A stretch of 64,000 nt of DNA from Epidermidibacterium keratini (GTDB lineage: Bacteria > Actinomycetota > Actinomycetes > Mycobacteriales > Antricoccaceae): NCBI RefSeq assembly GCF_009834025.1, contig NZ_CP047156.1, positions 2,170,001 to 2,234,000 of the forward strand, read 5' to 3'. Under the pieces are notes generated by a model that was not told the DNA's origin, made no database searches, and was given only the letters and a program-made list of their open reading frames with translations. Both the position numbers and the translations under genes were made by a program. Positions 22,234 to 49,049 of this stretch are shown piece after piece (within the stretch, counting starts at the first letter, position 1; the number at the start of each line of letters is the position of its first letter).

Positions 22234-25200
22234 GTGACTTCTTCCCCCACGTCCCTTCGTCCGCGCGCTCGAATCCTGACCCTGCTTGTCGCGAGCGCCC
22301 TCGGCGCCATCGGCCTGGTCTTGGCGCCAGTGTTGGAAAGCTCGGCCGAGAAGCCGGAGCCGGTGCCGGCCAGCGTCCAAGAGATCCCGCTCGGTGAGGT
22401 CACCGACCCCGCCGACGGCGTCGAGCTCAAAGACCCCAACAAGCCCGTCGGTGAGGGCCAGACGAGTACGCCGGACGACCCGGCATCGCCGTCCTCGCCG
22501 GTGCCGAGCCCCACGCCGGAGTCCGGGACGAGCCCGTTCCCAAGCCCCAGCGAGAGCCAGCCGGCCCCCTCACCCAGCCCCACCCCAAGCCCCACGCCGA
22601 CCCCGACACCGAGCCCCACGCCGGCCCCGTCCGGCGGGTCGGACGTCCCCGGCCTTGACAAACCAGTGCCGCTGCCCAGCGCCGAGCTCGCCCCGGACCA
22701 GCCGATGCCCGTGCCGGCCGGCTCCCGCACCCTCGTGCTCGATGAAACCCAGACGAAGGACTTCGCATCGGCGGGGATCTCGTGGGTCGGTGATGCGCCG
22801 GTCGACGGCATCGGCATGCAGGTGCGGACTAAGAGCGCTGAGACCGGGGAATGGTCGGACTGGAACGAGCTGACCGTCAGCCGGCTCGTCGCAGCCAACC
22901 CCGACGCCCCGGAGCAGCGCCAGGGATCTGACCCCTTCTGGTTTGGCGATTCCAACGGGGTAGAGGTCGCCGTGACGGTCATGCCCGGCACGCAGATCAG
23001 TGACCTGAAGATCACCCTGATCGACCCGAAGCAGGTCGCCCAGGACGCCGACCCGACCGCCGGGGCGCCGACCTCCAGCGCCGGCGCGGCGATGCAGCAG
23101 CCGCCGGTCTACACCCGTGCGGCGTGGGGTGCTGATGAGTCGAAGATGACCTGGGCGCCGAAGTACGCCTCGACTATCAAGGCCGCGACACTGCACCACA
23201 CCGCCGACACCAACAACTACTCGGCTGCCGACGTACCGGCGATGATGCGCTCGATCTACCAGTACCAGGCAGTCACCCTGGGCTGGGGCGACATCGGCTA
23301 CAACGTGGTCATCGACAAGTTCGGCCGCGCCTGGGAAGGCCGCAGCGGCGGCCTGGAGACAGCCGTGCAGGGCGCCCACGCGGGCGGGTTCAACACCTAC
23401 ACCTTCGGGCTGTCGATGCTCGGCAACTATGACACGGTCGACGTGCCGCAGGCGACGCGCGACACGCTCGCGCAATGGATCGCGTGGAAGTTCAGCCTCT
23501 TCAACGTCGACCCGCTCGCGACGACCCAGCTGACGCAGCAAGGCGGCAACGGGACTACGGCGAAGTTCCAGGACGGCCAAACGGTGACGCTCCCGACTGT
23601 CTTCGGGCATCGAGACACCGGGTATACCGCGTGTCCTGGCAGATACGGCTATGCGATCTTGCCGTGGCTGCGCCAGCGTGCCTCCGAGCTGATCCCACAG
23701 ATCAGCTACTCCACGGACACTAAGCGCACGATGCTGACCAACACCGGAGGCGTACCGGTGCGCGGGGGCCCCGGCCTCCTCTATGGAATGGTCGGAAGCC
23801 TGAGTGCGGGCACCTTCGTCACCGCCGACTCCACTATCTCCAACGGCTACATCAAGGTCAGCGGAAACGGGGTCACCGGATGGGTCGACCAGAAGTGGTT
23901 GGTCCAGGACCCGCATCCCAACAGCGCCCGTTACACCACGACAAGCGGTGTCCCGGTGTACGCCGGACCCGGGTCGGGTTATCTGGCGCTCGGGCAAGCC
24001 TCGGTCAACACAGCGTTCTACACCGATGGCGTCATCAGCGACGGTTATGTGCGAGTGCACTGGGGCAAGTCCGGCGGCTGGGTTCCGCAGCAGTGGCTGA
24101 CCACTACCCGCCCGGGCGGGCTTGCGATTCCCTCGGGGAACCCCACGAGCACCCGACCGATGCAGACCAACACCAACGGGATCCCGGTCTACTCCGGTCC
24201 GAGCACCTCGCAGCAGATCGGCACCCTCAGCGCGGGCATACCCGTCACCGCTGGTTATGAGGTGATCGGCGGGTATGTGCACATCAGCTTCGGCTCGAAC
24301 GGCGGCTGGGTTCCGTTGCAGTGGATGTCGTCCAACCCGCTGCCGACGCAGAACTTGTTTACGACGACCGGCGGAATCCAGGTCTACTTCGGGCCCGGCA
24401 ACGGATACGCCAAGGGCGACACCCTCTCAGCGGGAACCCCGCTGGCCGCCACCGGCGGCTCGGTCAACGGCTACGTCTGGATCGTCTACGGTGATGTCGG
24501 CGGCTGGATCGAGGCAAAGTGGACCTCGACCTACCCGCGCGGCAACCCGGTCGGCGAGCGGTTCGTGGCGACCAACACCGGTGGCGTGCCGGTCTACTCC
24601 GAGCCCAGCACTGCATCGACTGTGCGGACCACCTACAGCGGAAATACCGTGCTGCAGGCCGCCTATGCCGAGTACAACGGGATGACGCATATCCAGTATG
24701 GGACCACCGGTGGATGGGTCCCCTCGCAGTGGCTAACCACTAACCCGGGCGCGAGCTCGGTGGCGCTGACGAATACCGGCGGGGTCCCTGTCTATCTGGG
24801 GCCGGGTTCGGGTTACACGCTTGCCGGCTATCTTCCTGGCAGCCAGCAGGTGGGCCTGAGCGCGGAAGCACCGGTGGGCGGGTACCGCCACATCACCTAC
24901 GGGCAGACCGGCGGGTGGCTGTCTACGCAGTGGCTGGCGACCAACCCGACGAGTGTGACGGGCACCGTGTATACGAACACCGGCGGAGTTCCGGTGCACT
25001 TGGGACCGGGCTCGGGTTACGACCTCGCAGGGTCCGTCTCGGCCAACACCGCGCTGGCGTACTCCGGTGCGCCGCAGAACGGGTACGTGCAGGTGCGGTA
25101 CGGCTCGTACGGTGGTTGGGTCGCCCAGAAGTGGGTCATCCAGAACCCCACGCCGGTGAGCACCATGACCGCAACGACGAGCGGCATCTCGGCCTACCTC

Positions 25201-25341
25201 GGGCCCGGAACCGGCTACTACCGGATCGGTGAGATCTCCCAGGGGACCAAGGTCCAGGTCGGCGCCGAACGCGCCGACGGCTACATGCTCATCGTTTTCG
25301 GCAACACCGGTGCGTGGGTCCCGACCAAGTGGTTTAGCTAA
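22234..25341 (+). CDS. Secreted N-acetylmuramoyl-L-alanine amidase with eight SH3-like repeats
   Basis: A 1,035-residue exported protein. A signal sequence (about 1-39, ending near LESSAEK) is followed by a ~90-residue Pro/Ser/Thr wall-spanning linker and a beta domain (about 155-270). A PGRP/Ami_2 amidase (about 290-485) has Zn ligands in LHHTADTNN (His321/322), His459 and Cys467 (GHRDTGYTACPG). Eight ~65-residue repeats complete the protein, each of the form TNTGGVPVYLGPGSGY...GYxxIxYGxxGGWVxxxWL. They resemble bacterial SH3 domains and probably bind wall glycans. The gene is a companion to the minus-strand protein ending at 45859, which has the same repeats. Start GTG at 22234; preceding 160 nt is AT-richer than the surroundings, consistent with a promoter. 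Confidence 0.93.
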   Translation: MTSSPTSLRPRARILTLLVASALGAIGLVLAPVLESSAEKPEPVPASVQEIPLGEVTDPADGVELKDPNKPVGEGQTSTPDDPASPSSPVPSPTPESGTSPFPSPSESQPAPSPSPTPSPTPTPTPSPTPAPSGGSDVPGLDKPVPLPSAELAPDQPMPVPAGSRTLVLDETQTKDFASAGISWVGDAPVDGIGMQVRTKSAETGEWSDWNELTVSRLVAANPDAPEQRQGSDPFWFGDSNGVEVAVTVMPGTQISDLKITLIDPKQVAQDADPTAGAPTSSAGAAMQQPPVYTRAAWGADESKMTWAPKYASTIKAATLHHTADTNNYSAADVPAMMRSIYQYQAVTLGWGDIGYNVVIDKFGRAWEGRSGGLETAVQGAHAGGFNTYTFGLSMLGNYDTVDVPQATRDTLAQWIAWKFSLFNVDPLATTQLTQQGGNGTTAKFQDGQTVTLPTVFGHRDTGYTACPGRYGYAILPWLRQRASELIPQISYSTDTKRTMLTNTGGVPVRGGPGLLYGMVGSLSAGTFVTADSTISNGYIKVSGNGVTGWVDQKWLVQDPHPNSARYTTTSGVPVYAGPGSGYLALGQASVNTAFYTDGVISDGYVRVHWGKSGGWVPQQWLTTTRPGGLAIPSGNPTSTRPMQTNTNGIPVYSGPSTSQQIGTLSAGIPVTAGYEVIGGYVHISFGSNGGWVPLQWMSSNPLPTQNLFTTTGGIQVYFGPGNGYAKGDTLSAGTPLAATGGSVNGYVWIVYGDVGGWIEAKWTSTYPRGNPVGERFVATNTGGVPVYSEPSTASTVRTTYSGNTVLQAAYAEYNGMTHIQYGTTGGWVPSQWLTTNPGASSVALTNTGGVPVYLGPGSGYTLAGYLPGSQQVGLSAEAPVGGYRHITYGQTGGWLSTQWLATNPTSVTGTVYTNTGGVPVHLGPGSGYDLAGSVSANTALAYSGAPQNGYVQVRYGSYGGWVAQKWVIQNPTPVSTMTATTSGISAYLGPGTGYYRIGEISQGTKVQVGAERADGYMLIVFGNTGAWVPTKWFS

Positions 25342-25400: not shown

Positions 25401-25516
25401 GTTGTGATGGTGCGAGGTCGACCGACCATCGCGTCGTGCCCAAAACCAGCCCGCGGTCGGCGGTGTACGCCGTACCAGCCGTCGGCTGACGATCCACCGT
25501 CATCAGGAGGCCATTG

Positions 25517-26602
25517 GTGGCAACCAACATCCCCGCAGCATCGCCGATCATTGGAGACGAGGAGCGAGCCGCTGTCGACCGGGTGATGCGCTCGGGGATG
25601 ATCGCCCAAGGCCCTGAGGTCGCCGCGTTCGAGGGTGAATTCGCAGAGCTCGCCGGCGGCGTTACGTGCGTCGCGGTCAACTCCGGCACCTCGGCTCTGC
25701 ACATGGGCCTGATCGCGGCCGGCGTCCGTCCCGGTGACGAGGTCATCGTCCCGTCGTTCACGTTCGCCGCGACCGGCAACGCGGTCGCGCTGGTCGGCGC
25801 GACGCCGGTCTTCGTCGACGTCGAAGAGGACTACTTCTGCCTCGATCCCGCTGCGGTCGAAGCAGCGGTGACCGACAAGACGGTCGGCATCATGCCCGTG
25901 CACCTCTATGGCCACCCGGCCAACATGGCTGCCCTGCAGCAGATCGCCGACAAGCACGGACTGGCGATCTACGAGGACGCCGCTCAGGCGCACGGCGCGG
26001 AGTTCGACGGCACGCGCGTCGGCTCGTTCGGCAAGTTCGCCGCGTTCAGCCTCTACCCCACCAAGAACATGACCTCCGGCGAAGGCGGCATGGTCAGCAC
26101 GGCTGACGAAGACCTCGCGCGCACCGTGCGACTGCTGCGCAACCAGGGCATGGAGAAGCGCTACGAAAACGAGCTGGTCGGCTTCAACACCCGGATGACC
26201 GATATCCACGCCGCGATCGGTCGCGTGCAGCTGGGCAAGCTCGACGGCTGGACCAAGACCCGCCAGCAAAACGCGAAGTTCCTCGACGAGAACCTCTCCG
26301 GCGTCATCGTCCCGCCGGTCGCAGACAACGCCACGCACGTCTACCACCAGTACACAATCCGCGTCGACGCCGCCGACCGAGACGCGTTCGTCGCCGGCCT
26401 GGGCGAGCGCGGCGTCGGATCCGGTGTCTACTACCCGATCCCCACTCACGCCCTGCCCTCGTTCGGTCTCGACCTCGACCTGCCGACCACCGCGCGCGTC
26501 GCGAAGGAAGTGATCTCGCTTCCGGTGCACCCGGCGCTGCAGGACGGCGACCTGGAGAAGGTCGTCGCCGCCGTCAACGAGCTCGCATCGGCAGGTGCCT
26601 AA
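25517..26602 (+). CDS. DegT/DnrJ/EryC1 sugar aminotransferase, GnnB/WbpE-like
   Basis: A 361-residue PLP enzyme. The phosphate-binding NSGTSALHMGL, Asp in YEDAAQAHGAEF, and the PLP lysine in YPTKNMTSGEGGM are clear, and the GFNTRMTDIHAAIGRVQL region is typical of VioA/WbpE/GnnB proteins. It should convert a 3-keto sugar nucleotide to the 3-amino sugar using glutamate. The adjacent Gfo/Idh oxidoreductase would make the ketone and the LpxA homologue would acylate the amine. The GTG at 25517 has AGGAGG 6 nt upstream. It is the first gene of a tightly spaced plus-strand operon. Confidence 0.93.
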   Translation: MATNIPAASPIIGDEERAAVDRVMRSGMIAQGPEVAAFEGEFAELAGGVTCVAVNSGTSALHMGLIAAGVRPGDEVIVPSFTFAATGNAVALVGATPVFVDVEEDYFCLDPAAVEAAVTDKTVGIMPVHLYGHPANMAALQQIADKHGLAIYEDAAQAHGAEFDGTRVGSFGKFAAFSLYPTKNMTSGEGGMVSTADEDLARTVRLLRNQGMEKRYENELVGFNTRMTDIHAAIGRVQLGKLDGWTKTRQQNAKFLDENLSGVIVPPVADNATHVYHQYTIRVDAADRDAFVAGLGERGVGSGVYYPIPTHALPSFGLDLDLPTTARVAKEVISLPVHPALQDGDLEKVVAAVNELASAGA

Positions 26603-26605
26603 CCC

Positions 26606-27598
26606 ATGGCCAACCTTCGCGCTGCGCTCATCGGCCTCGGCTCGATGGGCCGCAACCACGCCCGCAACCTGCGCGCGCTGCCTGACGTCGACTTCGTCGC
26701 CGCCGTCGACCCCCAGGGCGACGCCTACGGAGTTGCCGGCGACGTACCCGTCCTTGCCGACCTTGATGAGCTGATCAAGCTCGGCGTCGACTACTGCGTC
26801 GTCGCCGCGCCCACCGCGCTGCACGGCAACATCGCCGAGCAGCTGGCCGGTGCCGGCATCCACATGCTCGTGGAGAAGCCGGTCGCCAAGGACTCCGCAA
26901 CCGCCCAGGCGATGGTCGACGCCTTCGACAAGGCCGGCCTCGTTGGAGCGGTCGGCCACATCGAGCGCTACAACCCGGCGCTGCAGGAGCTGAAGCGGCG
27001 CCTGGAAGGTGGCGAGCTCGGCGAGATCTTCCAGATCGCGACCCGCCGCCAGGGCCCGTTCCCCGCGCGCATCGCCGATGTCGGCGTCGTCATGGACCTC
27101 GCCTCCCACGACATCGACCTCACCGGCTTCGTCACCGGCCGGGAGTACGACGCCATCTCGGCGCGCACCGCGCACAAGTCCGGCCGTGAGCACGAGGACC
27201 TCGTCGCCGCCACGGGGCTGCTGAGCGGGTCGCTGGTCAGCAACCACCTGGTCAACTGGCTCTCCCCGCAGAAGGAGCGCTCGACGGTCGTCACCGGCGA
27301 GCTCGGCACGTTCATCGCCAGCACCCTCGATGCCGACCTCACCTTCCACGCCAACGGCACGGTGGAGTCGCAGTGGGACGACATCGCGCACTTCCGCGGC
27401 ATGACCGAGGGTGACGTGATCCGCTACGCGTTTTCCAAGCCGGAGCCGCTGCGCACCGAGCACGAGCTGTTCCGCGACGCCGTACTCGGCAAGGAAGCCG
27501 CGATCGTGACGCTGCGTGACGGACTGGCCGCGGTGCGCGTGTGTGAAGCGATGCTCGAGTCGGCGGCCACCGGCCGCACCGTCGAGCTGAAGGGCTAG
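26606..27598 (+). CDS. Gfo/Idh/MocA oxidoreductase, GnnA/WbpB-like
   Basis: A 330-residue NAD(P)-dependent sugar dehydrogenase. It has the N-terminal Rossmann fold (LIGLGSMGRNHARNL), the cofactor-site EKPVAKD (EKP motif) and the catalytic region GHIERYNPALQEL with the conserved His/Tyr area, then DLASHDIDL. Homologues oxidise C3 of UDP-GlcNAc or UDP-GlcNAcA. It starts 3 nt after the aminotransferase stop. Together with that gene it mirrors the GnnA/GnnB pair that makes UDP-GlcNAc3N in bacteria with N-linked lipid A acyl chains. The exact sugar is inferred. Confidence 0.92.
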   Translation: MANLRAALIGLGSMGRNHARNLRALPDVDFVAAVDPQGDAYGVAGDVPVLADLDELIKLGVDYCVVAAPTALHGNIAEQLAGAGIHMLVEKPVAKDSATAQAMVDAFDKAGLVGAVGHIERYNPALQELKRRLEGGELGEIFQIATRRQGPFPARIADVGVVMDLASHDIDLTGFVTGREYDAISARTAHKSGREHEDLVAATGLLSGSLVSNHLVNWLSPQKERSTVVTGELGTFIASTLDADLTFHANGTVESQWDDIAHFRGMTEGDVIRYAFSKPEPLRTEHELFRDAVLGKEAAIVTLRDGLAAVRVCEAMLESAATGRTVELKG

Positions 27599-27600
27599 CC

Positions 27601-28296
27601 GTGGCCAACGACATCCACCCCACGGCGATCGTCGGCGATGACGTCGAGCTCGGCGACGGCAACGTCGTCGGCCCCTACGCCGTGATCTCCGGACGCACCG
27701 TCATCGGCGACGGCAACTGGATCGGCCCGCATGTGGCGATCGGTATGCCGCCGGAGGTCTACAACTACGCGCACACCGCGGTGTGGAACAAGCCCGAGGG
27801 CGAGCGCTTTGTGCGGATCGGCAACGGCAACGTGCTGCACGAGTTCAGTAACGTCCAGTCCGGCTGGGCGACCGACACCGTGATCGGCAACGACTGCTTT
27901 TTGATGACCCAGGCGCATGTGGCGCATGACTGCGTGCTCGACAACCGGGTCACGGTCTCCAGCGGCGTCACGCTGGGCGGGCACACGCACATCTGGAGCA
28001 TGGCCAACGTCGGGATGTCCTCGGTCGTGCACCAGCGAGCCCAGATCGGCCCGGGCGCGATGATCGGGATGGGCTCAGCGGTCCGCAAGGACGCCCCGGC
28101 CTTCTCCATCACCGTCGGCAACCCCGCCCGCACGACCGGCATCAACGTCGTCGGCCTGGAGCGCAACGGCTGTGACGCTGCGACGATCGAGGCGATGACC
28201 GACTTCCTGCTCGGCCGCGGAGAGCTCCCGGCCAGCGCTCCCGAGGCGCTACGTGAGCTGCTCACCGCCTGGACCGACCGATCCACTGACCACTAG
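27601..28296 (+). CDS. LpxA-like acyl-ACP:UDP-amino-sugar acyltransferase
   Basis: A 231-residue left-handed beta-helix built of hexapeptide repeats (about 1-175) with a short helical C-terminus. It carries the LpxA catalytic site AHVAHDC (His109, Asp110), GGHTHI, VVHQR, and the LpxA-specific GINVVGLERNG, so it is closer to LpxA than to generic acetyltransferases. The residue aligned with the acyl ruler Gly173 of E. coli LpxA is Met157, as in the C10-selective Pseudomonas enzyme, which predicts a short to medium acyl group. Start GTG lies 2 nt after the previous stop. The next gene is an acyl carrier protein, the expected donor. It is shorter than LpxA (262) at the C-terminus. Confidence 0.88.
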   Translation: MANDIHPTAIVGDDVELGDGNVVGPYAVISGRTVIGDGNWIGPHVAIGMPPEVYNYAHTAVWNKPEGERFVRIGNGNVLHEFSNVQSGWATDTVIGNDCFLMTQAHVAHDCVLDNRVTVSSGVTLGGHTHIWSMANVGMSSVVHQRAQIGPGAMIGMGSAVRKDAPAFSITVGNPARTTGINVVGLERNGCDAATIEAMTDFLLGRGELPASAPEALRELLTAWTDRSTDH

Positions 28297-28327
28297 CTCT
28301 GAGATACCTGCGAACAAGAGGCGATAG

Positions 28328-28573
28328 ATGACCAACGAAGACAAGCTCAAGGACGCATTCGTCGAGGCCCTCGACGTCGAGGCCGCCGACATCGACTGGG
28401 ACACCTTGAAATACCGTGGCATCGAGCAGTGGGATTCGGTCGCGCACATGCGCCTCGTCGGAGAGATCGAGGACACCTTCGACGTCATGCTCGAGACCGA
28501 GCAGGTCATCGACATGAGCAGCTACCAGGTGGCCAAGGAGATGCTGACCGAGATGGGTGTCGAGTTTGCCTGA
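28328..28573 (+). CDS. Acyl carrier protein
   Basis: An 81-residue acidic four-helix protein. Ser37 in EQWDSVAHM is the phosphopantetheine attachment site; the motif DSV replaces the DSL of fatty-acid ACPs, as in specialised carrier proteins. It is embedded in the operon between the LpxA homologue and the FabG-like reductase, and a dedicated phosphopantetheinyl transferase lies at the operon end. It probably carries the acyl chain that is loaded by the AMP-ligase, reduced, and passed to the LpxA-like enzyme or LuxE/LuxC. Its stop overlaps the next start by 17 nt. Confidence 0.94.
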   Translation: MTNEDKLKDAFVEALDVEAADIDWDTLKYRGIEQWDSVAHMRLVGEIEDTFDVMLETEQVIDMSSYQVAKEMLTEMGVEFA

Positions 28574-29342
28574 CGCCGCGCAGACCACCGACCCGCTGTC
28601 GCTTGCCGGGCGCGCCGCGTTCGTCACCGGCGGTTCGCGCGGGATCGGTCTGGCTTGCGCGCGAGCGCTGGCCCAGCGTGGCGCCGACATCGCGATCTCT
28701 GGCAGCGCAGATCCTGACGGCCTGCAGGCGAAGGCGGCCGAGCTCGCCGACGAGTTCGGCGTCACCGCGATCGGGCTGGTCTGCGACAACGCCGAGCCGA
28801 GCCAGATCCCGGCTGCCTACAAGACGATTCGCTCCGAGCTGGGCCGGCTCGACGTACTCGTCAACAACGCGGGGATCATGGAGGGTGCGCTGATCGGGAT
28901 GATCGGCAACGACGTGCTGCGCCGCACCATGGCGATCAACGTCGAGGGCGCCATCGCGCACCTGCAGGCGGCCGCCAAGCTGCTGCGACGCGCCAAGGGC
29001 GGCTCGATCATCAACCTCACCTCGATCCTCGGAGTCGAAGGCCGCGCCGGCCAGACGGTGTATGCCGCCTCCAAGGCGGCGGTGATCGGCGCGACGAAGT
29101 CGGCAGCCAAGGAGCTGGCCGGCGAGCAGATCCGCGTCAACGCCGTCGCTCCGGGCTTCATCAGCACGGATCTCACCGCAGCGCTGGATGAGGCTGAGCG
29201 GGAGGCGACGGTCGAGGCGATCGCGATGGGTCGCGCTGGCACGCCCGAGGACGTCGCAGACACCGTGCTTTACCTGGCCAGTGATCTGTCGAAGTACGTC
29301 ACGGGCCAGGTGATCGGCGTCGACGGCGGGATGCGGGCGTGA
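28557..29342 (+). CDS. 3-oxoacyl-ACP reductase (FabG-like SDR)
   Basis: A 261-residue classical SDR. TGGSRGIG binds NADPH, NNAG is intact, and the catalytic set is Ser (NLTSILG), Tyr and Lys (VYAASKAAV). The C-terminal LASDLSKYVTGQVIGVDGG is typical of FabG. It should reduce a 3-oxoacyl group on the adjacent ACP, giving a 3-hydroxyacyl chain like those used by LpxA. GTG 28557 overlaps the ACP gene; a TTG at 28563 is an alternative. The stop overlaps the ligase start (GTGA). Confidence 0.92.
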   Translation: MSSLPDAAQTTDPLSLAGRAAFVTGGSRGIGLACARALAQRGADIAISGSADPDGLQAKAAELADEFGVTAIGLVCDNAEPSQIPAAYKTIRSELGRLDVLVNNAGIMEGALIGMIGNDVLRRTMAINVEGAIAHLQAAAKLLRRAKGGSIINLTSILGVEGRAGQTVYAASKAAVIGATKSAAKELAGEQIRVNAVAPGFISTDLTAALDEAEREATVEAIAMGRAGTPEDVADTVLYLASDLSKYVTGQVIGVDGGMRA

Positions 29343-30718
29343 GCTCAGACCGCGCCGCAGCGCCCGCACTGATCGCGGCCGACGGCTCGCAGACGCTGAC
29401 GCACGGCAACATCGCAGCGCTAGCTGAAGAGTTCACGCGGGCGACTGATGGCCGGCGGTTGGTCTTTCACTTCGGGGCGCAGACGATGCGCTCCATCTCG
29501 CTTTTTCGGGCGGCGGTGGACGCCGGAGCCGCTGTCGCGCTACTCGATGCCGGTCTCGGCAGCGAGTTTGCCACCGAGCTGATCGAGCGCTACCAGCCCG
29601 ACGTGCTCGTCGGCGCGCCTGAGGGCCTGCGCGGTGCGGCGTACCAGCGCGTGCTCGAAGACGTGTGGCTGCGCGACGGCGAGCCCGCCGACGTACACCC
29701 CGACCTGTCGATCCTGCTGTCGACCTCCGGCAGCACCGGCAGCCCGAAGTTCGTGCGGCTGTCGCGTGAGAACGTTGCGGCCAACACCGAGCAGATCATC
29801 GCCTCGCTCGGCATCACCGCCGACGACCGCGCGATCACCGCGCTGCCGCTCTTCTACAGCTACGGCATGTCGGTGATCAACACCCATCTCGCGGCCGGCG
29901 GTGCTGTCGTGGTCACCAGCGACAGCGTCTTCGACCCGGGCTTCTGGCAAGCGTTTGCCGACCACCGCGTCAGCTTCCTGAACGGCGTGCCGTCGAGCTT
30001 TGCGATGCTGCGCCGCCTGCGGATCGAAAACATGGACCTGCCTGCGCTGCGCGCCATCACCCAGGCCGGCGGCAAGCTCAACGACAAGCTCATCGAGCAC
30101 TTCGCCGGGGTCATGGGCGAGCGTGGCGGCGACTTCTTCGTGATGTACGGCCAGACCGAGGCGGCGCCGCGAATCACCTGCCGCAGCGTCAACGGCACCG
30201 AAGACCGGGCTGGCTCGGTCGGACCGGCCCTGCGCGGCGGCGTACTCGAGATCATCGACCTCGATGGCGCAGTGCTGCCGGCCGGTGAGTCTGGCGAGGT
30301 GCGCTACCGCGGACCCAACGTGATGATGGGGTACGCCGAGACCGCGGCCGACCTCGCGCTCGGTGACGTGCACGGAGACGCCTTGCAGACTGGCGATCTT
30401 GGCCATCTCGACGACGACGGGTTCCTTTACATCACCGGACGCAGCAAGCGGATCGCGAAGGTGTCCGGCCTGCGGATCTCCCTCGACGAGGTCGAGCAGC
30501 TGGTCGCCGACCGCGGCCCCGTGGCCGCGGTTCCGCGAGGCGACGACGCGGTCGTCGTCTACTGCGAGTGGGATGACGACGACTTCCGCGGCCTGTCACG
30601 CGAGCTGACGACCAGGCTGAAGCTGCCGCCGAAGTCGATCGTGCTGGAACATATCGAGGCCATCCCCGTGTTGAACAATGGGAAGACCGACTATCAATCG
30701 CTACAGCAGCGATCTTAG
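29339..30718 (+). CDS. AMP-dependent acyl/amino-acid ligase (ANL superfamily)
   Basis: A 459-residue adenylate-forming enzyme. The A3 motif STSGSTGSPKFVRLS, YGQTEAAPR (A5), TGDLGHLDDDGFLYITGRSKRIAKVSGLRI (A7-A8) and the catalytic Lys of NNGKTDYQSL (A10) are visible. It is shorter than most acyl-CoA synthetases at the N-terminus, resembling stand-alone domains that activate small acids for carrier proteins. It probably loads a carboxylic acid onto the ACP of this operon. The substrate is not predictable from sequence alone. Confidence 0.9.
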   Translation: MSSDRAAAPALIAADGSQTLTHGNIAALAEEFTRATDGRRLVFHFGAQTMRSISLFRAAVDAGAAVALLDAGLGSEFATELIERYQPDVLVGAPEGLRGAAYQRVLEDVWLRDGEPADVHPDLSILLSTSGSTGSPKFVRLSRENVAANTEQIIASLGITADDRAITALPLFYSYGMSVINTHLAAGGAVVVTSDSVFDPGFWQAFADHRVSFLNGVPSSFAMLRRLRIENMDLPALRAITQAGGKLNDKLIEHFAGVMGERGGDFFVMYGQTEAAPRITCRSVNGTEDRAGSVGPALRGGVLEIIDLDGAVLPAGESGEVRYRGPNVMMGYAETAADLALGDVHGDALQTGDLGHLDDDGFLYITGRSKRIAKVSGLRISLDEVEQLVADRGPVAAVPRGDDAVVVYCEWDDDDFRGLSRELTTRLKLPPKSIVLEHIEAIPVLNNGKTDYQSLQQRS

Positions 30719-30727
30719 GAAGCCACG

Positions 30728-31834
30728 ATGTCGCTAGAGCAATTCTTCGAGCGCCCGCAGTTCAGCATCCCGCAGGATGAGAAGGAACGGCTGCTGACCG
30801 AGACGCTCGGTGAGCTTGCGGCCCACCACCGCGAGCGCAGCGAGCCCTACGCCCGGATCTCCGGCGCGCTCGATGCCCCGACCGGTACGCCGTCGTCACT
30901 GGCCGACTTTCCTTATCTGCCAGTGTCGATCTTCAAGTCCCACGAGCTGCGCAGCGTGCCCGAGGACGAGGTCTTCAAGGTGATGACCTCCAGCGGCACC
31001 ACCGGCCAGCAGGTCAGCCGCATCTTCCTGGACCGGCGTACCGCCGACCTGCAAAGCCGCGCGCTGAGCACCATCATGACCAGCGTGCTCGGCCCGAAGC
31101 GGCTGCCGATGATCGTGATCGACACGCCCAACGTCGTGCGCAACCGCGCGATGTTTTCCGCGCGCGGCGCCGGCGTACTCGGCATGATCCAGTACGGCCG
31201 CAAGCACTTCTATGCCCTCGATGACGACATGAACCTCGACGTCGAGGGGCTGCAGGAGTTCCTCTCCGCGTACGGCGACCGGCCGATCCTGCTCTTTGGA
31301 TTCACCTTCATGGCGTGGAAGTACTTCCTCGCCGCGATCCGCGACCAGGGGCTGGACGTCGACCTCAGCAACGGCGTACTCATCCACAGCGGCGGCTGGA
31401 AGAAGCTGCAGGACGAGGCCGTGGGCAACGAAGAGTTCAAGTCGACGTTCCGCGAGCTGACCGGGCTGGGCCGCATCCACAACTTCTACGGCATGGTCGA
31501 GCAGGTCGGCAGCGTCTTCCTTGAGGGCGAGGACGGCTATCTCTATCCGCCGAACTTCGCCGATGTCATCATCCGCAACCCGATCACCTGGGAAGTCGCC
31601 AAGGACGGCGAGCAGGGGCTGATCGAGGTACTCAGCGTGCTGCCGCACAGCTATCCCGGCCATGTGCTGCTGACCGAGGACCTCGGCATCGTGCACGGCG
31701 TCAGTGATGGCACCGGTCCCGGCGGCTGGCACGGCAAGCGACTGCAGGTCATCGGCCGGGTGCCGAAGGCCGAGCTGCGCGGCTGCAGCGACACTCACGC
31801 CTTCGACAAGCAGCCCGCGGGCGTGGGTTCATGA
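30728..31834 (+). CDS. LuxE-family acyl-protein synthetase
   Basis: A 368-residue protein of the LuxE/acyl-protein synthetase family, related to ANL enzymes. VMTSSGTTGQQVSRIFLDR is the nucleotide-binding loop, and FGFTFMAWKYF and IHSGGWKKL are LuxE landmarks. Cys353 in ELRGCSDTH, near the C-terminus, matches the cysteine that carries the acyl group in bioluminescence LuxE. It adenylates an acid, takes it onto this Cys and hands it to LuxC. No luciferase (LuxAB) genes are present, so the role is not light production. Its stop overlaps the luxC-like start by 4 nt. Confidence 0.92.
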   Translation: MSLEQFFERPQFSIPQDEKERLLTETLGELAAHHRERSEPYARISGALDAPTGTPSSLADFPYLPVSIFKSHELRSVPEDEVFKVMTSSGTTGQQVSRIFLDRRTADLQSRALSTIMTSVLGPKRLPMIVIDTPNVVRNRAMFSARGAGVLGMIQYGRKHFYALDDDMNLDVEGLQEFLSAYGDRPILLFGFTFMAWKYFLAAIRDQGLDVDLSNGVLIHSGGWKKLQDEAVGNEEFKSTFRELTGLGRIHNFYGMVEQVGSVFLEGEDGYLYPPNFADVIIRNPITWEVAKDGEQGLIEVLSVLPHSYPGHVLLTEDLGIVHGVSDGTGPGGWHGKRLQVIGRVPKAELRGCSDTHAFDKQPAGVGS

Positions 31835-33063
31835 TTCGTCAGCTGTTGCCGGAGGCCCGCGAGGTCGACCCGGCCGAGCTCGTTGCTGAACTCAACTCAC
31901 ATCCGACGGCGCGCCCTTTCAGCGACGAGGTCGTCGACTTCACCGTCGCGCTGTCGCGTCGGTTGTCGAAGGTCGGCCGCGGGATGCCAGAGACCGAGGC
32001 GCTGGCCTTCTGGATGCGCAAGGCCGAGGTACGCCGTCTCGCTGACAGTTATGCCTCGCTCGGCTCTGACTCGACCCTGCTGCGCCCGCGCGGCACCGTC
32101 TTGCACGTGCCGCCGGCCAACGTCGACACCCTGTTTGTCTACTCGTGGCTGCTCGCGACGCTCACCGGCAACCGCAACGTCGTGCGTCTCTCCGAGCGCG
32201 CAACCGACCAGGCCAACCTGATCATCGGCGCGATCGGCGAGGTCATCGGCGGCTTCCCGAGCGTCCGCGACACCACTGCGATGGTCACTTACGGGCACGA
32301 GGAGACGGTCACCGCCGCGCTCAGCGCCGGCAGCGACGTGCGAATCATCTGGGGCGGCGACGGCACTGTCAACGCCGTACGCCGAGTGCCCCTGCCGCCG
32401 CACGCGACCGAGCTGACCTTCCCGGATCGCTTCTCGATGGCTGCCGTCGACACCGCGGCGTACGCCGCCCTCGGCGATAGCGAGCGAGACCGGCTTGCGA
32501 CGCATTTCTTCAATGACGCGTACTGGTTTGACCAGATGGGCTGCTCATCGCCGCGCCTGGTCGTGTGGGCCGGCGAACGCGAGGCCGCAGCCGAACTCAC
32601 CGCGGACTTCGCGCGTCGGGTCGAGCAGGTCATCGCGAGCAAGTCCTACTCGGTCGACACCGCGACGGCCGTGGCAAAGATGCTGCAGTCCTACCGCTCG
32701 ATGATCGACGTCGATGTCACGTCGTACTCCCATGACGTCAACGAGCTGACCGTGCTCGGGGTCAAGGAGTTTCCCGACGTGCGCGGGGAGTTCTCCGGCG
32801 GCGGGCTGTTTTACTTCCAGACGGTCGATGACTTGCTGGAGATCGCGCCCAACATTGAGCGCCGCGACCAGACGCTGTCGCAGTTCGGCTTCTCCGCGGC
32901 CAAGCTCGGCGAGCTCGGGGCGACGCTCAACGGTCGCGGCATCGACCGCATCGTGCCATTTGGGGCAGCACTGAACTTCAACCGGTTCTGGGACGGCTAC
33001 GACCTGCTGCAGGAGTTCTCCCGGCGGGTCACGATCGACGCGTCCGCGCCGCAGCTGGCGTAG
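31831..33063 (+). CDS. LuxC-family acyl-CoA/acyl-protein reductase
   Basis: A 410-residue aldehyde-dehydrogenase-fold reductase. The cofactor region (HVPPANVDTLFVYSW and IIWGGDGTVNAVR) and the nucleophile Cys238 in DQMGCSSPRLV match LuxC. It reduces a thioester-bound acyl group with NADPH to an aldehyde. Translational coupling to the LuxE homologue suggests the two work as a complex, as in bacterial fatty-acid reductase. In this sugar-acylation operon the aldehyde or derived alcohol may modify a glycan; this is inference. Confidence 0.92.
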   Translation: MIRQLLPEAREVDPAELVAELNSHPTARPFSDEVVDFTVALSRRLSKVGRGMPETEALAFWMRKAEVRRLADSYASLGSDSTLLRPRGTVLHVPPANVDTLFVYSWLLATLTGNRNVVRLSERATDQANLIIGAIGEVIGGFPSVRDTTAMVTYGHEETVTAALSAGSDVRIIWGGDGTVNAVRRVPLPPHATELTFPDRFSMAAVDTAAYAALGDSERDRLATHFFNDAYWFDQMGCSSPRLVVWAGEREAAAELTADFARRVEQVIASKSYSVDTATAVAKMLQSYRSMIDVDVTSYSHDVNELTVLGVKEFPDVRGEFSGGGLFYFQTVDDLLEIAPNIERRDQTLSQFGFSAAKLGELGATLNGRGIDRIVPFGAALNFNRFWDGYDLLQEFSRRVTIDASAPQLA

Positions 33064-33067
33064 GACC

Positions 33068-33436
33068 GTGGTCGACCTGCCGCTGTCTGGGCTTCGCGGC
33101 ATCGGCATCGACACCGAGGCGGTCGCGCGTTTCGCAGACCCCGACCTGCGACTCTTTACCGACCGTGAGGCGGCGTACTGCCTGGCGCAGGCCAAGCCGG
33201 CCGAAAGCTTCGCCGGCCGCTGGTGCGCCAAAGAAGCCGTCGTGAAGGCGTTCGGTGCGATCACCCGCGCGGGCATCCGCGAGGTCGAGATCGTCGAAGG
33301 GGAGTTCGGCGAGCCCGTGGCCGTGCTCTCCGAGCGGCTTCGCGAGCTGGGGTACGGCGTACTCGTCAGCATCGCTCACGACGAGAGCCGTGCCATTGCT
33401 GCCGCGGCCCTTACGCTCGGTGTGAGTTCCGAGTAG
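33068..33436 (+). CDS. acpS: Holo-ACP synthase (4'-phosphopantetheinyl transferase, AcpS type)
   Basis: A 122-residue AcpS-type transferase. The Mg-binding GIDTEAV (GIDxxxx) and FAGRWCAKEAVVKAFG motifs and the strand VLVSIAHDES are present. It transfers phosphopantetheine from CoA to the carrier-protein serine. Being last in the operon it probably activates the ACP encoded at 28328, independent of the housekeeping enzyme. GTG start 4 nt after the luxC-like stop. Confidence 0.88.
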   Translation: MVDLPLSGLRGIGIDTEAVARFADPDLRLFTDREAAYCLAQAKPAESFAGRWCAKEAVVKAFGAITRAGIREVEIVEGEFGEPVAVLSERLRELGYGVLVSIAHDESRAIAAAALTLGVSSE

Positions 33437-45858: not shown

Positions 45859-48474
45859 CTAAGCGAGCCAGCGAGCCTCAACCCATCCGCCGTATGCGCC
45901 GTAGGCGATCTGCACGTAGCCACCGACCGACTGGGTCGAGACTTGCACGGTCGTGCCGACGCTGATTTCGCCGATACGCTGGTAACCGCTGCCAGGGCCG
46001 AGATAGACCGCGATGCCGCTGGTGGTTGCCTTCTTCGCGCTCAGCGGTGGGGGCGGCGGTGTCGCCAGCCACTGGGTCTTTATCCACGCGCCGGTCGTGC
46101 CGAAGACCACCCTGGAGTACCCGTTGACGGTGGACGTCCCGACGGACACGCTGGTCTGCGCCGGGAGCGTCGATACAACGGACCCGCCCGGCGAGCTCAC
46201 GACAGGAACTCCGTTGGTGTTGGTAGTGGCGCTGCGGGTAATGACGGGGTTGGTCGTTGCCGTGGCAGAGAGCCACTTGCTCGGCACCCAGCCGCCGTAC
46301 TGCCCGAAGACGATGTTTGTGTAGCCGTCCTGCGTGGCCCCGATCTGGACCCCCTCACCGGCAAACAGCTCGCCGGCCCGGACGTAGCCGCTTGAGGGAC
46401 CGTAGTACACCGGTATCCCGCTCGTGACGGTGTAGGCCAGACCGGTTGCGGTGGGTTGTTGTGATAGCCACTTGCTTGCTACCCAGCCGCCGGTCTGCCC
46501 GAACTGGATCCGCGTGTATCCGTCGCGGCTCTCGGCGGCCGTGACGACCGTCGCGGCACCCAGTTGGCCAGCCGGGATGTAGCCCGATCCCGGTCCTAGA
46601 TACACGGGGACTCCACCGGTGTTGGTGATGGCCGGTGATCCGCTGGTCGGGTTGGTGCTGAGCCACCGGGAGTCCACCCACGCGCCGTACGTGCCGTAGA
46701 CGATTCGAGTGAAGCCGTCTTGGGTGCCCGCGGTCTGCACCGCGACGCCGCCCGGCACGGGGCCGGCAACGGCGTACGACGTCCCTGGCCCCAGGTAACC
46801 GGTGATCCCGCCGGTGTTCGTATAAGCGGTTCCGGTCGCTGCCGGTTGGGTTGCCACCCACCGTGACTCGACCCAGCCACCGGCGATCCCCCACGTGATG
46901 TGCGTGTAGCCGTTGGTCGATTCGGCGGTCTTGACGATGTCTCCTGCAACGAGCGACCCCGCGCGGTAGTAGCCCGATCCGGGGCCAAGGTAGACCGGGA
47001 CGCCGCCGGTGTTGATCATGCCCGAGCCGGTCGCGACCGGCTGAAACGCCAGCCACGTCGACTGGATGTATCCGCCGGTTTTGCCGTACTCGACGTTGAT
47101 GAACCCGTTGGTCTCCCCGGCGCCTGCCTTCACGGTGGTGTTTGCTGACAGCGTCGTCAGGACCTGGGAGCCGGAGTTGGCTTCGAGGTAGACCGGGACA
47201 CCGCCGGTGTTCGTCAACCCAGTCCTGGTGACCACCGGGTTGTTTCCGATGGTGGGACCGAGCCACTTTGCCTCGACCCAGCCACCGGTCGAGCCGTAGA
47301 CGATATGTGCGTAGCCGTTCTGGCTGGTGGCTCCGACGCCAACCAGAACGTCCGCGTTGAGGTAGCCGGCCTGGTAGTAGCCGGCGCCGGGGCCCAGGTA
47401 GACCGGTATGGCGTTGGTCTTTGTGTAGAGCGAGGTGACCGGGGTCGGATTCGAGACGAGCCAGTAGGTCTTCACCCATCCAGACAGACCCGCCCCGTTG
47501 ATCTGGTAGTAGCCGTTGATGACCTCTTGCTGCTGGGCGTAGACCAGGACGTTGGGTCCGAGGTAGCCGACAATCTGATCTGGACCCGTCGGCTGGGCCA
47601 TCACGGGGATGCCGCCGGTGTTCGTCGTCATCGGAGTGCCCTGCGTCGAGGCTGATCCGAACCAGTCGGTGTAGTACACCCAGAAGTTGCGGTTGCCGTA
47701 CGCCGAGCAGCTGTCTCCGGTGCCGTAGAGATTCGCCAGCGCGGCGGCGTTGGGTTGGTACGGCGTGTAGATATACAGGTTGGCCGTTGCCTGGTTCTGG
47801 ATGTAGACCGGCGCTGAGCCGCAGGCGGTGTTCGGGTTATAGAGGATGTTGTTGGTCCGACCGGCCTGGTAGCCATATCGTCCAGGGTTGGCCGCGTAGA
47901 CCTTGAACTGGCGAGCCATCTGATAGATCTGGTTGAACAACCCGTAGTACTGAGAGTCGCAGGGAGCGGTGTCCGGACAGCCGAATCCGGTCGCGGCCTG
48001 ATACATCCGAAGCGTCGGCCGCGAATAGGTCACAAGCCCGGATTCCTTTTGCAGCATCACCAAGATGACCTTCTGGCTGATCCCGCAGGCTTGACCGACC
48101 ACGGTGATGATCTGCGCGGCGGTTGCCGACGACATCGCGGGCACGGCCGCGCACAACCCGCTCTCGGCGACCCGCGACGGCGTCGAGGTGCTGTAGTCCT
48201 TCAGGCAGGGCATCGTTCCGGCGACGCAGTTCGCGCCCTTGGCATCCAGGAACGCATCGACGCTTTGGGTCGACATGGCATTGCCGTCGAAAAACAGCTC
48301 GTCGGTGATGAGCATCCCAGCCCGGAAGTCGGCGGCGTTCGCCGCACTCGCCGGCGAGGGCACCGAGAGGATCAGGCTGAGGCACGTGACAAGCAGCAGC
48401 AGCGATCTGGCGCGCAGCGGGCGCACCGCACGCCGGTCAGCGATGTCGTGCTCGGCCTCTGGCAACCTGCTCAC
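45859..48474 (-). CDS. Secreted lysozyme-like protein with nine SH3-like repeats
   Basis: An 871-residue exported protein. A long signal peptide (about 1-44, SLLLLVTCLSLILSVPSPASA) is followed by an N-terminal domain (about 45-290) with eight or so cysteines and VILVMLQKESGL, where Glu144 matches the catalytic Glu of lytic-transglycosylase/goose-lysozyme folds. Nine ~65-residue repeats follow, the same family as in the amidase at 22234. The last repeat of both begins TTSGI and is the most similar pair, so it may be a capping unit. GTG 48474 overlaps the upstream gene stop (GTGA); longer readings are antisense artefacts. It probably binds and remodels peptidoglycan. Confidence 0.88.
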   Translation of the reverse strand: MSRLPEAEHDIADRRAVRPLRARSLLLLVTCLSLILSVPSPASAANAADFRAGMLITDELFFDGNAMSTQSVDAFLDAKGANCVAGTMPCLKDYSTSTPSRVAESGLCAAVPAMSSATAAQIITVVGQACGISQKVILVMLQKESGLVTYSRPTLRMYQAATGFGCPDTAPCDSQYYGLFNQIYQMARQFKVYAANPGRYGYQAGRTNNILYNPNTACGSAPVYIQNQATANLYIYTPYQPNAAALANLYGTGDSCSAYGNRNFWVYYTDWFGSASTQGTPMTTNTGGIPVMAQPTGPDQIVGYLGPNVLVYAQQQEVINGYYQINGAGLSGWVKTYWLVSNPTPVTSLYTKTNAIPVYLGPGAGYYQAGYLNADVLVGVGATSQNGYAHIVYGSTGGWVEAKWLGPTIGNNPVVTRTGLTNTGGVPVYLEANSGSQVLTTLSANTTVKAGAGETNGFINVEYGKTGGYIQSTWLAFQPVATGSGMINTGGVPVYLGPGSGYYRAGSLVAGDIVKTAESTNGYTHITWGIAGGWVESRWVATQPAATGTAYTNTGGITGYLGPGTSYAVAGPVPGGVAVQTAGTQDGFTRIVYGTYGAWVDSRWLSTNPTSGSPAITNTGGVPVYLGPGSGYIPAGQLGAATVVTAAESRDGYTRIQFGQTGGWVASKWLSQQPTATGLAYTVTSGIPVYYGPSSGYVRAGELFAGEGVQIGATQDGYTNIVFGQYGGWVPSKWLSATATTNPVITRSATTNTNGVPVVSSPGGSVVSTLPAQTSVSVGTSTVNGYSRVVFGTTGAWIKTQWLATPPPPPLSAKKATTSGIAVYLGPGSGYQRIGEISVGTTVQVSTQSVGGYVQIAYGAYGGWVEARWLA

Positions 48475-49049
48475 GGCACCGTGATCTTCGTCGGTTCGGA
48501 GGTCGCGGTCTCGTCGCCCCCGACGAACGACACCGTGACGGTCCACACGCCTGACGATCCCGACGGCAGCGGTATCGCGATCGTCCCGCAGGACATTCCT
48601 TTGCCATCGAAGACCGCCGAGCCAGCCTGGGTCAACGTCGCAGAGCCGTTCTCGGCACTGACGGTGCACGTCCCCTCCAGGGCGCTCACCCCGGTGATCG
48701 CCGACACCACATCCAGGGCAGCGCTCGCTGGATTCCAGGTCGCGCTGGTGATCTGAATGTGCACATTCGAAGCCGCGGTCGTGGGACTGTCTGGCGGCAG
48801 ACTGCTCAGCTGCGACGGAGTCGCGCTCGCAGCGGGATCGTCTGAGGTCGAGCTTTCAGAACTGCCGGTTGTGGCGGACTCCGACGGAGGAGGCGTCGTC
48901 TGCGATGGCGAGGACGTGCCGGATTCGCCGGCCTGCGTATTGCTTCGGACAACCAGCACTATGGCGACGAGAAGCGCGGCGAGAACGCACGCGAGGACCG
49001 CGACACCGACGGTGCGACGACTGGGGGAAGAGGGGCGCATCTTTGGCAC
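48471..49049 (-). CDS. Membrane-anchored extracytoplasmic protein, unknown function
   Basis: A 192-residue protein with a basic start, one transmembrane helix (about 13-35, VGVAVLACVLAALLVAIVLVV), a Ser/Thr/Pro-rich linker of about 55 residues and a small beta-rich domain (about 95-192) with two cysteines. I do not recognise the fold; an immunoglobulin-like sandwich is possible. It is coupled to the lysozyme-like gene by a 4-nt overlap, so it may anchor or assist that protein at the wall. GTG 49049 and ATG 49040 are both possible starts. Confidence 0.75.
   Translation of the reverse strand: MPKMRPSSPSRRTVGVAVLACVLAALLVAIVLVVRSNTQAGESGTSSPSQTTPPPSESATTGSSESSTSDDPAASATPSQLSSLPPDSPTTAASNVHIQITSATWNPASAALDVVSAITGVSALEGTCTVSAENGSATLTQAGSAVFDGKGMSCGTIAIPLPSGSSGVWTVTVSFVGGDETATSEPTKITVP

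What the first reader, a model, noticed from the sequence alone, without database searches (positions are those of the whole stretch)
30728..33063. LuxE and LuxC homologues without luciferase in a sugar-acylation operon
The pair is translationally coupled and keeps the key residues: Cys353 (RGCSDTH) in the LuxE homologue and Cys238 (DQMGCSSP) in the LuxC homologue. In luminous bacteria they reduce a fatty acid to an aldehyde. Here no luxA/luxB gene is near and the partner genes handle carrier-bound acyl groups and sugars. A plausible role is reducing a carrier-bound acid to an aldehyde or alcohol for glycan decoration, or recycling free acid.
Basis: partly seen in the sequence, partly recalled or inferred. 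Interest (0 to 1): 0.85.

Follow-up and report, generated by a model that had tools for sequence, protein, structure and literature searches.

The report
Lux-like enzymes for sugar acylation
Two proteins related to enzymes that feed light production in glowing bacteria sit, in this non-luminous actinobacterium, in a five-gene kit shared by many unrelated bacteria, which most likely makes a small hydroxy acid that is attached to amino sugars of the cell surface.

Summary
In detail: 30728-31834 encodes a LuxE homologue and 31831-33063 a LuxC homologue (ATGA overlap, both catalytic cysteines kept). They end a fixed cassette: acyl carrier protein (ACP), FabG-like dehydrogenase (SDR), AMP ligase, LuxE, LuxC. 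The same order on one strand occurs in 68 of 74 complete relatives, from at least seven phyla. Neighbours are amino-sugar genes (aminotransferases, N-acyltransferases, pseudaminic-acid genes); no luciferase was found. The cassette was already listed, without biochemistry, in Aeromonas and enterobacterial flagellin-glycosylation islands, and a LuxE-domain protein is assigned to tetronate (2,4-dihydroxybutyrate) synthesis in Vibrio cholerae O1.

Best explanation: LuxE activates a small dicarboxylic acid, LuxC reduces it to a semialdehyde, the SDR makes a hydroxy acid, the ligase loads it on the ACP, and the LpxA-like enzyme puts it on a 3-amino sugar. A clue by arithmetic: Aeromonas AH-3, which carries the cassette, has a 376.14-Da pseudaminic derivative (calculated with dihydroxybutyryl replacing an acetyl: 376.148) and an unexplained 102-Da unit (C4H6O3 = 102.03).

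The chemistry is inferred, not shown. It is a new variant of a known but unexplained kind.

The parts
25514..26602 (+). DegT/DnrJ/EryC1 sugar aminotransferase
   Evidence: PF01041 417.7 bits; solved relatives include perosamine synthetase and WbpE
26606..27598 (+). Gfo/Idh/MocA oxidoreductase, UDP-GlcNAc 3-dehydrogenase-like
   Evidence: PF01408; NF040723 189 bits, below its cut-off of 450; nearest solved chain 7bvj
27601..28296 (+). LpxA-like hexapeptide acyltransferase, likely N-acyltransferase; AHVAHDC motif kept
   Evidence: PF00132; LpxA structures at E 1e-33 and weaker, motif aligned
28328..28573 (+). Acyl carrier protein, DSVAHM motif
   Evidence: PF00550; DSxxH[ML] in all 85 cassette ACPs examined
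28557..29342 (+). FabG-like short-chain dehydrogenase (SDR)
   Evidence: PF13561 213 bits; FabG structures
29339..30718 (+). AMP-forming acid:ACP (or CoA) ligase
   Evidence: PF00501 153 bits; solved relatives
30728..31834 (+). LuxE homologue, Cys353
   Evidence: PF04443 178 bits; alignments; model pLDDT 90.6
31831..33063 (+). LuxC homologue, Cys238
   Evidence: PF05893 93.5 bits; alignments; model pLDDT 94.4, best PDB match 7xc6_A
33068..33436 (+). AcpS-like phosphopantetheinyl transferase, likely primes the operon ACP
   Evidence: PF01648 52 bits; an AcpS-like gene also lies after LuxC in L004, L013, L019, L020, L021, L044

Best explanation
The LuxE/LuxC pair is the acid-reducing half of a conserved five-gene cassette that makes a short hydroxy-acyl group for an amino sugar. 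Proposed steps: (1) LuxE adenylates one carboxyl of a small free acid, most likely a C4 dicarboxylic acid such as malate, and takes the acyl on Cys353; (2) the acyl passes to Cys238 of LuxC, which reduces it with NADPH to a semialdehyde; (3) the FabG-like SDR reduces the semialdehyde to an alcohol, giving a hydroxy acid (2,4-dihydroxybutyrate if the acid is malate); (4) the AMP ligase loads the remaining carboxyl on the operon's ACP, primed by the AcpS-like enzyme; (5) the LpxA-like acyltransferase moves the acyl to the amino group of a nucleotide-activated 3-amino sugar made by the Gfo/Idh/MocA dehydrogenase and the DegT aminotransferase; (6) the sugar enters a cell-surface glycan. Shown here: gene content and order, catalytic residues, folds, and conservation beside amino-sugar acylation genes. 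Inferred: every substrate and every chemical step.
For: Exact order ACP-SDR-ligase-LuxE-LuxC in 66 of 74 complete loci, plus two with an extra gene, in at least seven phyla. Flanking families: hexapeptide transferases, DegT aminotransferases, NeuB, GNAT, cytidylyltransferases; a pseudaminic-acid cluster around the cassette in L136 and a PseH-like gene before the ACP in L135. The same genes in 98 Aeromonas strains and many Enterobacteriaceae. V. [quoted passage not shown] the (S)-2,4-dihydroxybutyryl group on perosamine; the ligase WbeL of that gene set is needed for normal O1 antigen. Mass arithmetic for Aeromonas AH-3: 376.14 reported, 376.148 calculated; unknown 102-Da unit, C4H6O3 = 102.032. 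Catalytic cysteines kept. LuxE and LuxC score 71 and 40 bits against luminous-model cut-offs of 550 and 750.
Against: No substrate was tested. V. cholerae sequences were not compared here; from memory that cluster has an iron alcohol dehydrogenase where this one has an SDR. In three loci that lack the SDR next to the cassette (L023, L071, L085) no alcohol dehydrogenase was found among the proteins scanned. The AH-3 masses were measured in another phylum, and O-methylglyceroyl has the same formula. A ligase in addition to LuxE is not explained by any direct evidence.
Confidence: 0.62

Rival explanations
1. The pair reduces medium- or long-chain fatty acids to aldehydes or alcohols, as in luminous bacteria, and the cassette adds a lipid to the glycan (a 'liposugar').
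For: Family names and catalytic cysteines; this is what the two papers on flagellin islands suggested.
Against: Scores far below luminous models; the reported AH-3 masses fit no octanoyl substituent on pseudaminic acid; no acyl-ACP thioesterase (LuxD role) among the nine genes.
Confidence: 0.15
2. The cassette makes a different short acyl (4-hydroxybutyryl from succinate, 3-hydroxypropionyl from malonate, or a 3-hydroxy acid made by the SDR on the ACP) by the same logic.
For: The families do not fix the acid; the SDR is FabG-like; lineages with a transketolase pair in the cassette imply different products.
Against: Hydroxybutyryl does not fit the AH-3 mass, though that concerns Aeromonas only.
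Confidence: 0.3
3. The pair runs in reverse: LuxC oxidises an aldehyde and LuxE passes the acyl on, or the pair recycles free acid released from the carrier.
For: LuxC has an aldehyde-dehydrogenase fold, and such enzymes can oxidise aldehydes.
Against: The cassette already has an acid ligase, so recycling would not need LuxC; no aldehyde source is seen in the operon.
Confidence: 0.08
4. The locus belongs to a secreted natural product, not to a surface glycan.
For: Many carriers are actinobacteria such as Amycolatopsis, known for natural products (the reputation is general knowledge).
Against: Amino-sugar and glycan neighbours recur in unrelated phyla; glycosyltransferase genes surround the operon here.
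Confidence: 0.05

Closest known systems
Aeromonas group II flagellin glycosylation island, genes orf1-orf2-orf3-luxE-luxC (PMC7874193)
   Same: Same five gene kinds: ACP, 3-oxoacyl-ACP reductase, AMP-dependent synthetase, LuxE, LuxC; gammaproteobacterial loci L135 and L136 show the order
   Different: There with pseudaminic-acid genes and flagellin as target; here with a DegT, Gfo/Idh/MocA and LpxA-like set, and no flagellin match in the genome
Vibrio cholerae O1 tetronate genes (rfbKLMNO, VC0248-VC0252)
   Same: A LuxE-domain protein in a pathway for a hydroxy acid that acylates an amino sugar; ACP, ligase and acyltransferase roles as recalled from Morona 1995
   Different: Acceptor perosamine; an iron alcohol dehydrogenase instead of the SDR (from memory, not tested here)
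Luminous LuxC-LuxE fatty acid reductase (7XC6)
   Same: Folds and catalytic cysteines
   Different: No luciferase genes; scores far below the luminous models
Amycolatopsis-type loci, e.g. L030-L039 and L131
   Same: LpxA-like gene then the five-gene cassette, with DegT and Gfo/Idh/MocA genes next to it
   Different: DegT and Gfo/Idh/MocA genes on the opposite strand; no AcpS-like match found there

Membership tests
Five-gene ACP-SDR-ligase-LuxE-LuxC cassette (Aeromonas group II type) | All five genes in that order on one strand | tested here: met
   Window 28328-33063
Five-gene ACP-SDR-ligase-LuxE-LuxC cassette (Aeromonas group II type) | Beside amino-sugar N-acylation genes | tested here: met
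   DegT aminotransferase and LpxA-like acyltransferase directly upstream
Luminous LuxC-LuxE fatty acid reductase | LuxE and LuxC domains with catalytic cysteines | tested here: met
Luminous LuxC-LuxE fatty acid reductase | Scores over the luminous-enzyme models NF052244 and NF052251 | tested here: not met
   71 of 550 bits and 40 of 750 bits
Luminous LuxC-LuxE fatty acid reductase | luxA/luxB luciferase in the genome | tested here: inconclusive
   29 PF00296 hits; seven classified, none a luciferase; the others were not classified one by one
V. cholerae O1 tetronate (rfbKLMNO) pathway | LuxE/LuxC-type protein with ACP, acid ligase and hexapeptide acyltransferase | tested here: met
   Gene kinds present; the V. 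cholerae side comes from papers and memory
V. cholerae O1 tetronate (rfbKLMNO) pathway | Iron-type alcohol dehydrogenase | tested here: not met
   An SDR stands in that place
V. cholerae O1 tetronate (rfbKLMNO) pathway | Product is 2,4-dihydroxybutyryl on an amino sugar | not testable with these tools
   Needs chemistry
GnnA-GnnB-LpxA type diamino-sugar acylation | UDP-GlcNAc 3-dehydrogenase, aminotransferase and LpxA-type acyltransferase together | tested here: inconclusive
   Best matches are of these kinds but below cut-off: 189 of 450 bits and 178 of 226 bits

The most novel reading that the evidence does not exclude
LuxC-LuxE chemistry is a widespread way to turn small dicarboxylic acids into hydroxy-acyl groups for amino sugars. 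The cassette would be one biochemical module spread over many phyla that explains unassigned 102-Da and +60-Da units in bacterial glycans, with luminous fatty acid reductase as a specialised relative.
Probability: 0.3. Interest if true: 0.75.

Novelty: new variant of a known kind. Interest (0 to 1): 0.52.

Why it matters
LuxE/LuxC homologues in non-luminous bacteria are usually annotated by analogy with bioluminescence. If this pair makes short hydroxy acids for sugar acylation, it gives a testable function to hundreds of loci (at least 563 relatives in one genome collection), predicts the identity of an unexplained mass in Aeromonas flagellin glycan, and extends a pathway proposed for one cholera antigen to actinobacterial cell surfaces.

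Tried and rejected
Luminescence role: rejected; scores far below luminous models and no luciferase among the proteins classified. Flagellin as acceptor in this organism: no Flagellin_N match. Test whether an alcohol dehydrogenase replaces the SDR where it is missing (L023, L071, L085): none found among the flanking proteins scanned, so step 3 is neither supported nor refuted by it. Shewanella sfm genes as a relative: that paper does not mention LuxE. Gammaproteobacterial LuxE in L137: a different context (neighbours that read like cysteine desulfurase and a NifU-type protein), left out. V. cholerae sequences were not fetched, so that comparison rests on papers and memory. First automatic gene calls in high-GC loci were unreliable and were redone with a codon-usage model. 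Paper searches for dihydroxybutyryl with LuxE/LuxC genes gave no prior statement of this link; the library is open-access only.

Full report
1. Observation. The window encodes a LuxE homologue (30728-31834, 368 aa) and a LuxC homologue (31831-33063, 410 aa) that overlap by ATGA. Pfam scores are 178 bits for LuxE and 93.5 bits for LuxC, well over cut-off. Cys353 and Cys238 are invariant in all alignments made and align with the corresponding cysteines of the Photobacterium complex 7XC6. AlphaFold models are confident (mean pLDDT 90.6 and 94.4). LuxC's best structural match is 7XC6 LuxC. LuxE matches PaaK-type adenylating enzymes, with Cys353 on a low-confidence C-terminal tail. The genome holds one LuxE and no other LuxC over the cut-off.

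2. Surroundings. Nine genes run in one direction from 25514 to 33436: DegT aminotransferase, Gfo/Idh/MocA oxidoreductase, LpxA-like acyltransferase, ACP, FabG-like SDR, AMP ligase, LuxE, LuxC and an AcpS-like phosphopantetheinyl transferase. A Shine-Dalgarno-like sequence precedes the first gene. Around them lie glycosyltransferases, an epimerase, a second DegT aminotransferase and a second hexapeptide transferase. No flagellin match was found in the genome.

3. Is it a unit? A LuxE profile scan of one genome for each of 84,980 species gave at least 563 relatives, of which the best 80 were fetched. In 74 loci with enough flank, 66 have exactly ACP-SDR-ligase-LuxE-LuxC on one strand, and two more have it with an extra SDR or ligase match beside it. 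The set is dominated by Actinomycetota (Amycolatopsis above all), but it also includes Acidobacteriota, Chloroflexota, Geomonas (LuxE and LuxC fused in one 777-aa protein), Bacteroidota, Bacillota, Pseudomonadota and candidate division GN15. Deinococcus, Rhizobium and Nonomuraea copies were found in the plasmid collection. It is patchy: 3 of 61 relatives searched, the window's own genome counted. The window's LuxE groups with a member of its own family, then with Mycobacteriaceae and Pseudonocardia copies, with Actinoplanes, Microbacteriaceae and Deinococcus copies in the next set. This fits horizontal movement but does not prove it. All 85 cassette ACPs keep a DSxxH[ML] motif.

4. Company. 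Among 116 flanking proteins of diverse loci the commonest families are hexapeptide transferases (13), DegT aminotransferases (10), NeuB (5), epimerases (5), glycosyltransferase family 2 (5), GNAT transferases (5) and cytidylyltransferases (4); no luciferase is among the 25 commonest families. In gammaproteobacterial locus L136, genes matching PseB, PseC, PseF and PseI lie before the cassette and a PseD-like flagellin-modification gene after it; in L135 a PseH-like N-acyltransferase gene ends next to the ACP start. Of the 80 fetched loci, 42 hold an LpxA-like match, 40 a Gfo/Idh/MocA match and 64 a DegT match. The shared theme is an amino sugar plus an N-acyltransferase.

5. Literature. The same five genes are listed for 98 Aeromonas strains with group II flagellin glycosylation islands and for many Enterobacteriaceae; both papers suggested a lipid-bearing sugar. 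A LuxE domain is noted in V. [quoted passage not shown] V. cholerae O1 perosamine carries (S)-2,4-dihydroxybutyryl, and the ligase WbeL of that gene set is needed for normal O1 antigen.

6. Mass clue. Aeromonas AH-3, a group II strain, carries a pseudaminic derivative reported as 376.14 Da and an unknown unit of 102 Da. Replacing one acetyl of Pse5Ac7Ac by C4H6O3 gives 376.148 Da, and C4H6O3 is 102.032 Da. Hydroxybutyryl, glyceroyl, malyl, lactyl, hydroxyvaleryl and octanoyl do not fit. A. caviae Sch3 is reported to carry plain Pse5Ac7Ac, though a review gives 373 Da for A. caviae; whether Sch3 lacks the cassette is not stated in the text read. This arithmetic is an inference from published masses, and an O-methylglyceroyl group would fit equally well.

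7. Mechanism. The families fix roles in outline: LuxE activates a free acid and LuxC reduces a thioester to an aldehyde (established knowledge for luminous bacteria); AMP ligase and ACP make an acyl thioester; an LpxA-type enzyme uses acyl-ACP. No ketosynthase is among the nine genes, so chain building there is unlikely. The simplest reading is a small acid with two carboxyls: one reduced to an alcohol by LuxE, LuxC and the SDR, the other loaded on the ACP. The ligase's solved relatives include oxalyl-CoA synthetase and an adenylating enzyme filed as a non-ribosomal peptide synthetase, which from memory is VinN, specific for 3-methylaspartate; this is mild support for a small polar acid. A transketolase pair in the Kurthia, Lysinibacillus and Rhizobium loci suggests that in some lineages the carbonyl intermediate is extended. 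Not shown: any substrate, the order of reduction and loading, and the final sugar.

8. Verdict. Its reading is right in kind (acid reduction for glycan decoration) and is here narrowed to short hydroxy-acyl synthesis for amino-sugar N-acylation. The cassette is known from gene lists but uncharacterised; this copy is a variant with a different acceptor-sugar branch, in an actinobacterium.

Noticed in passing
window 22234-25341 (+) and 45859-48669 (-): Two long proteins with many SH3-type repeats; the first also has an N-acetylmuramoyl-L-alanine amidase domain. They flank the sugar region on both sides.
   Followed up: partly
L015 2188-4012, L079 5586-7389, L096 5811-7620: A split transketolase (N- and C-terminal halves as two genes) near or inside the LuxE/LuxC cassette of Rhizobium, Kurthia and Lysinibacillus; its role there is unknown.
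   Followed up: partly
L026 8989-11322: LuxE and LuxC fused in one 777-aa protein in Geomonas.
   Followed up: yes
L031, L043; L014 13358-14602: Rhodobacteraceae loci with the cassette but no LuxC after LuxE; in Ponticoccus the LuxC gene lies inverted about 2.3 kb away.
   Followed up: partly
L137 5316-10079: A distant LuxE next to genes that read like a cysteine desulfurase, a NifU-type protein, an AMP ligase and an ACP, in a gammaproteobacterium: another unexplained LuxE context.
   Followed up: no
L017 5932-10809: A conjugative Salmonella plasmid carries a LuxE-like gene with two further AMP-binding or PaaK-like genes; function unknown.
   Followed up: no
own genome, 29 places: 29 luciferase-family (PF00296) hits; the seven proteins classified are F420-dependent or NtaA/SfnG-type oxidoreductases.
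   Followed up: partly
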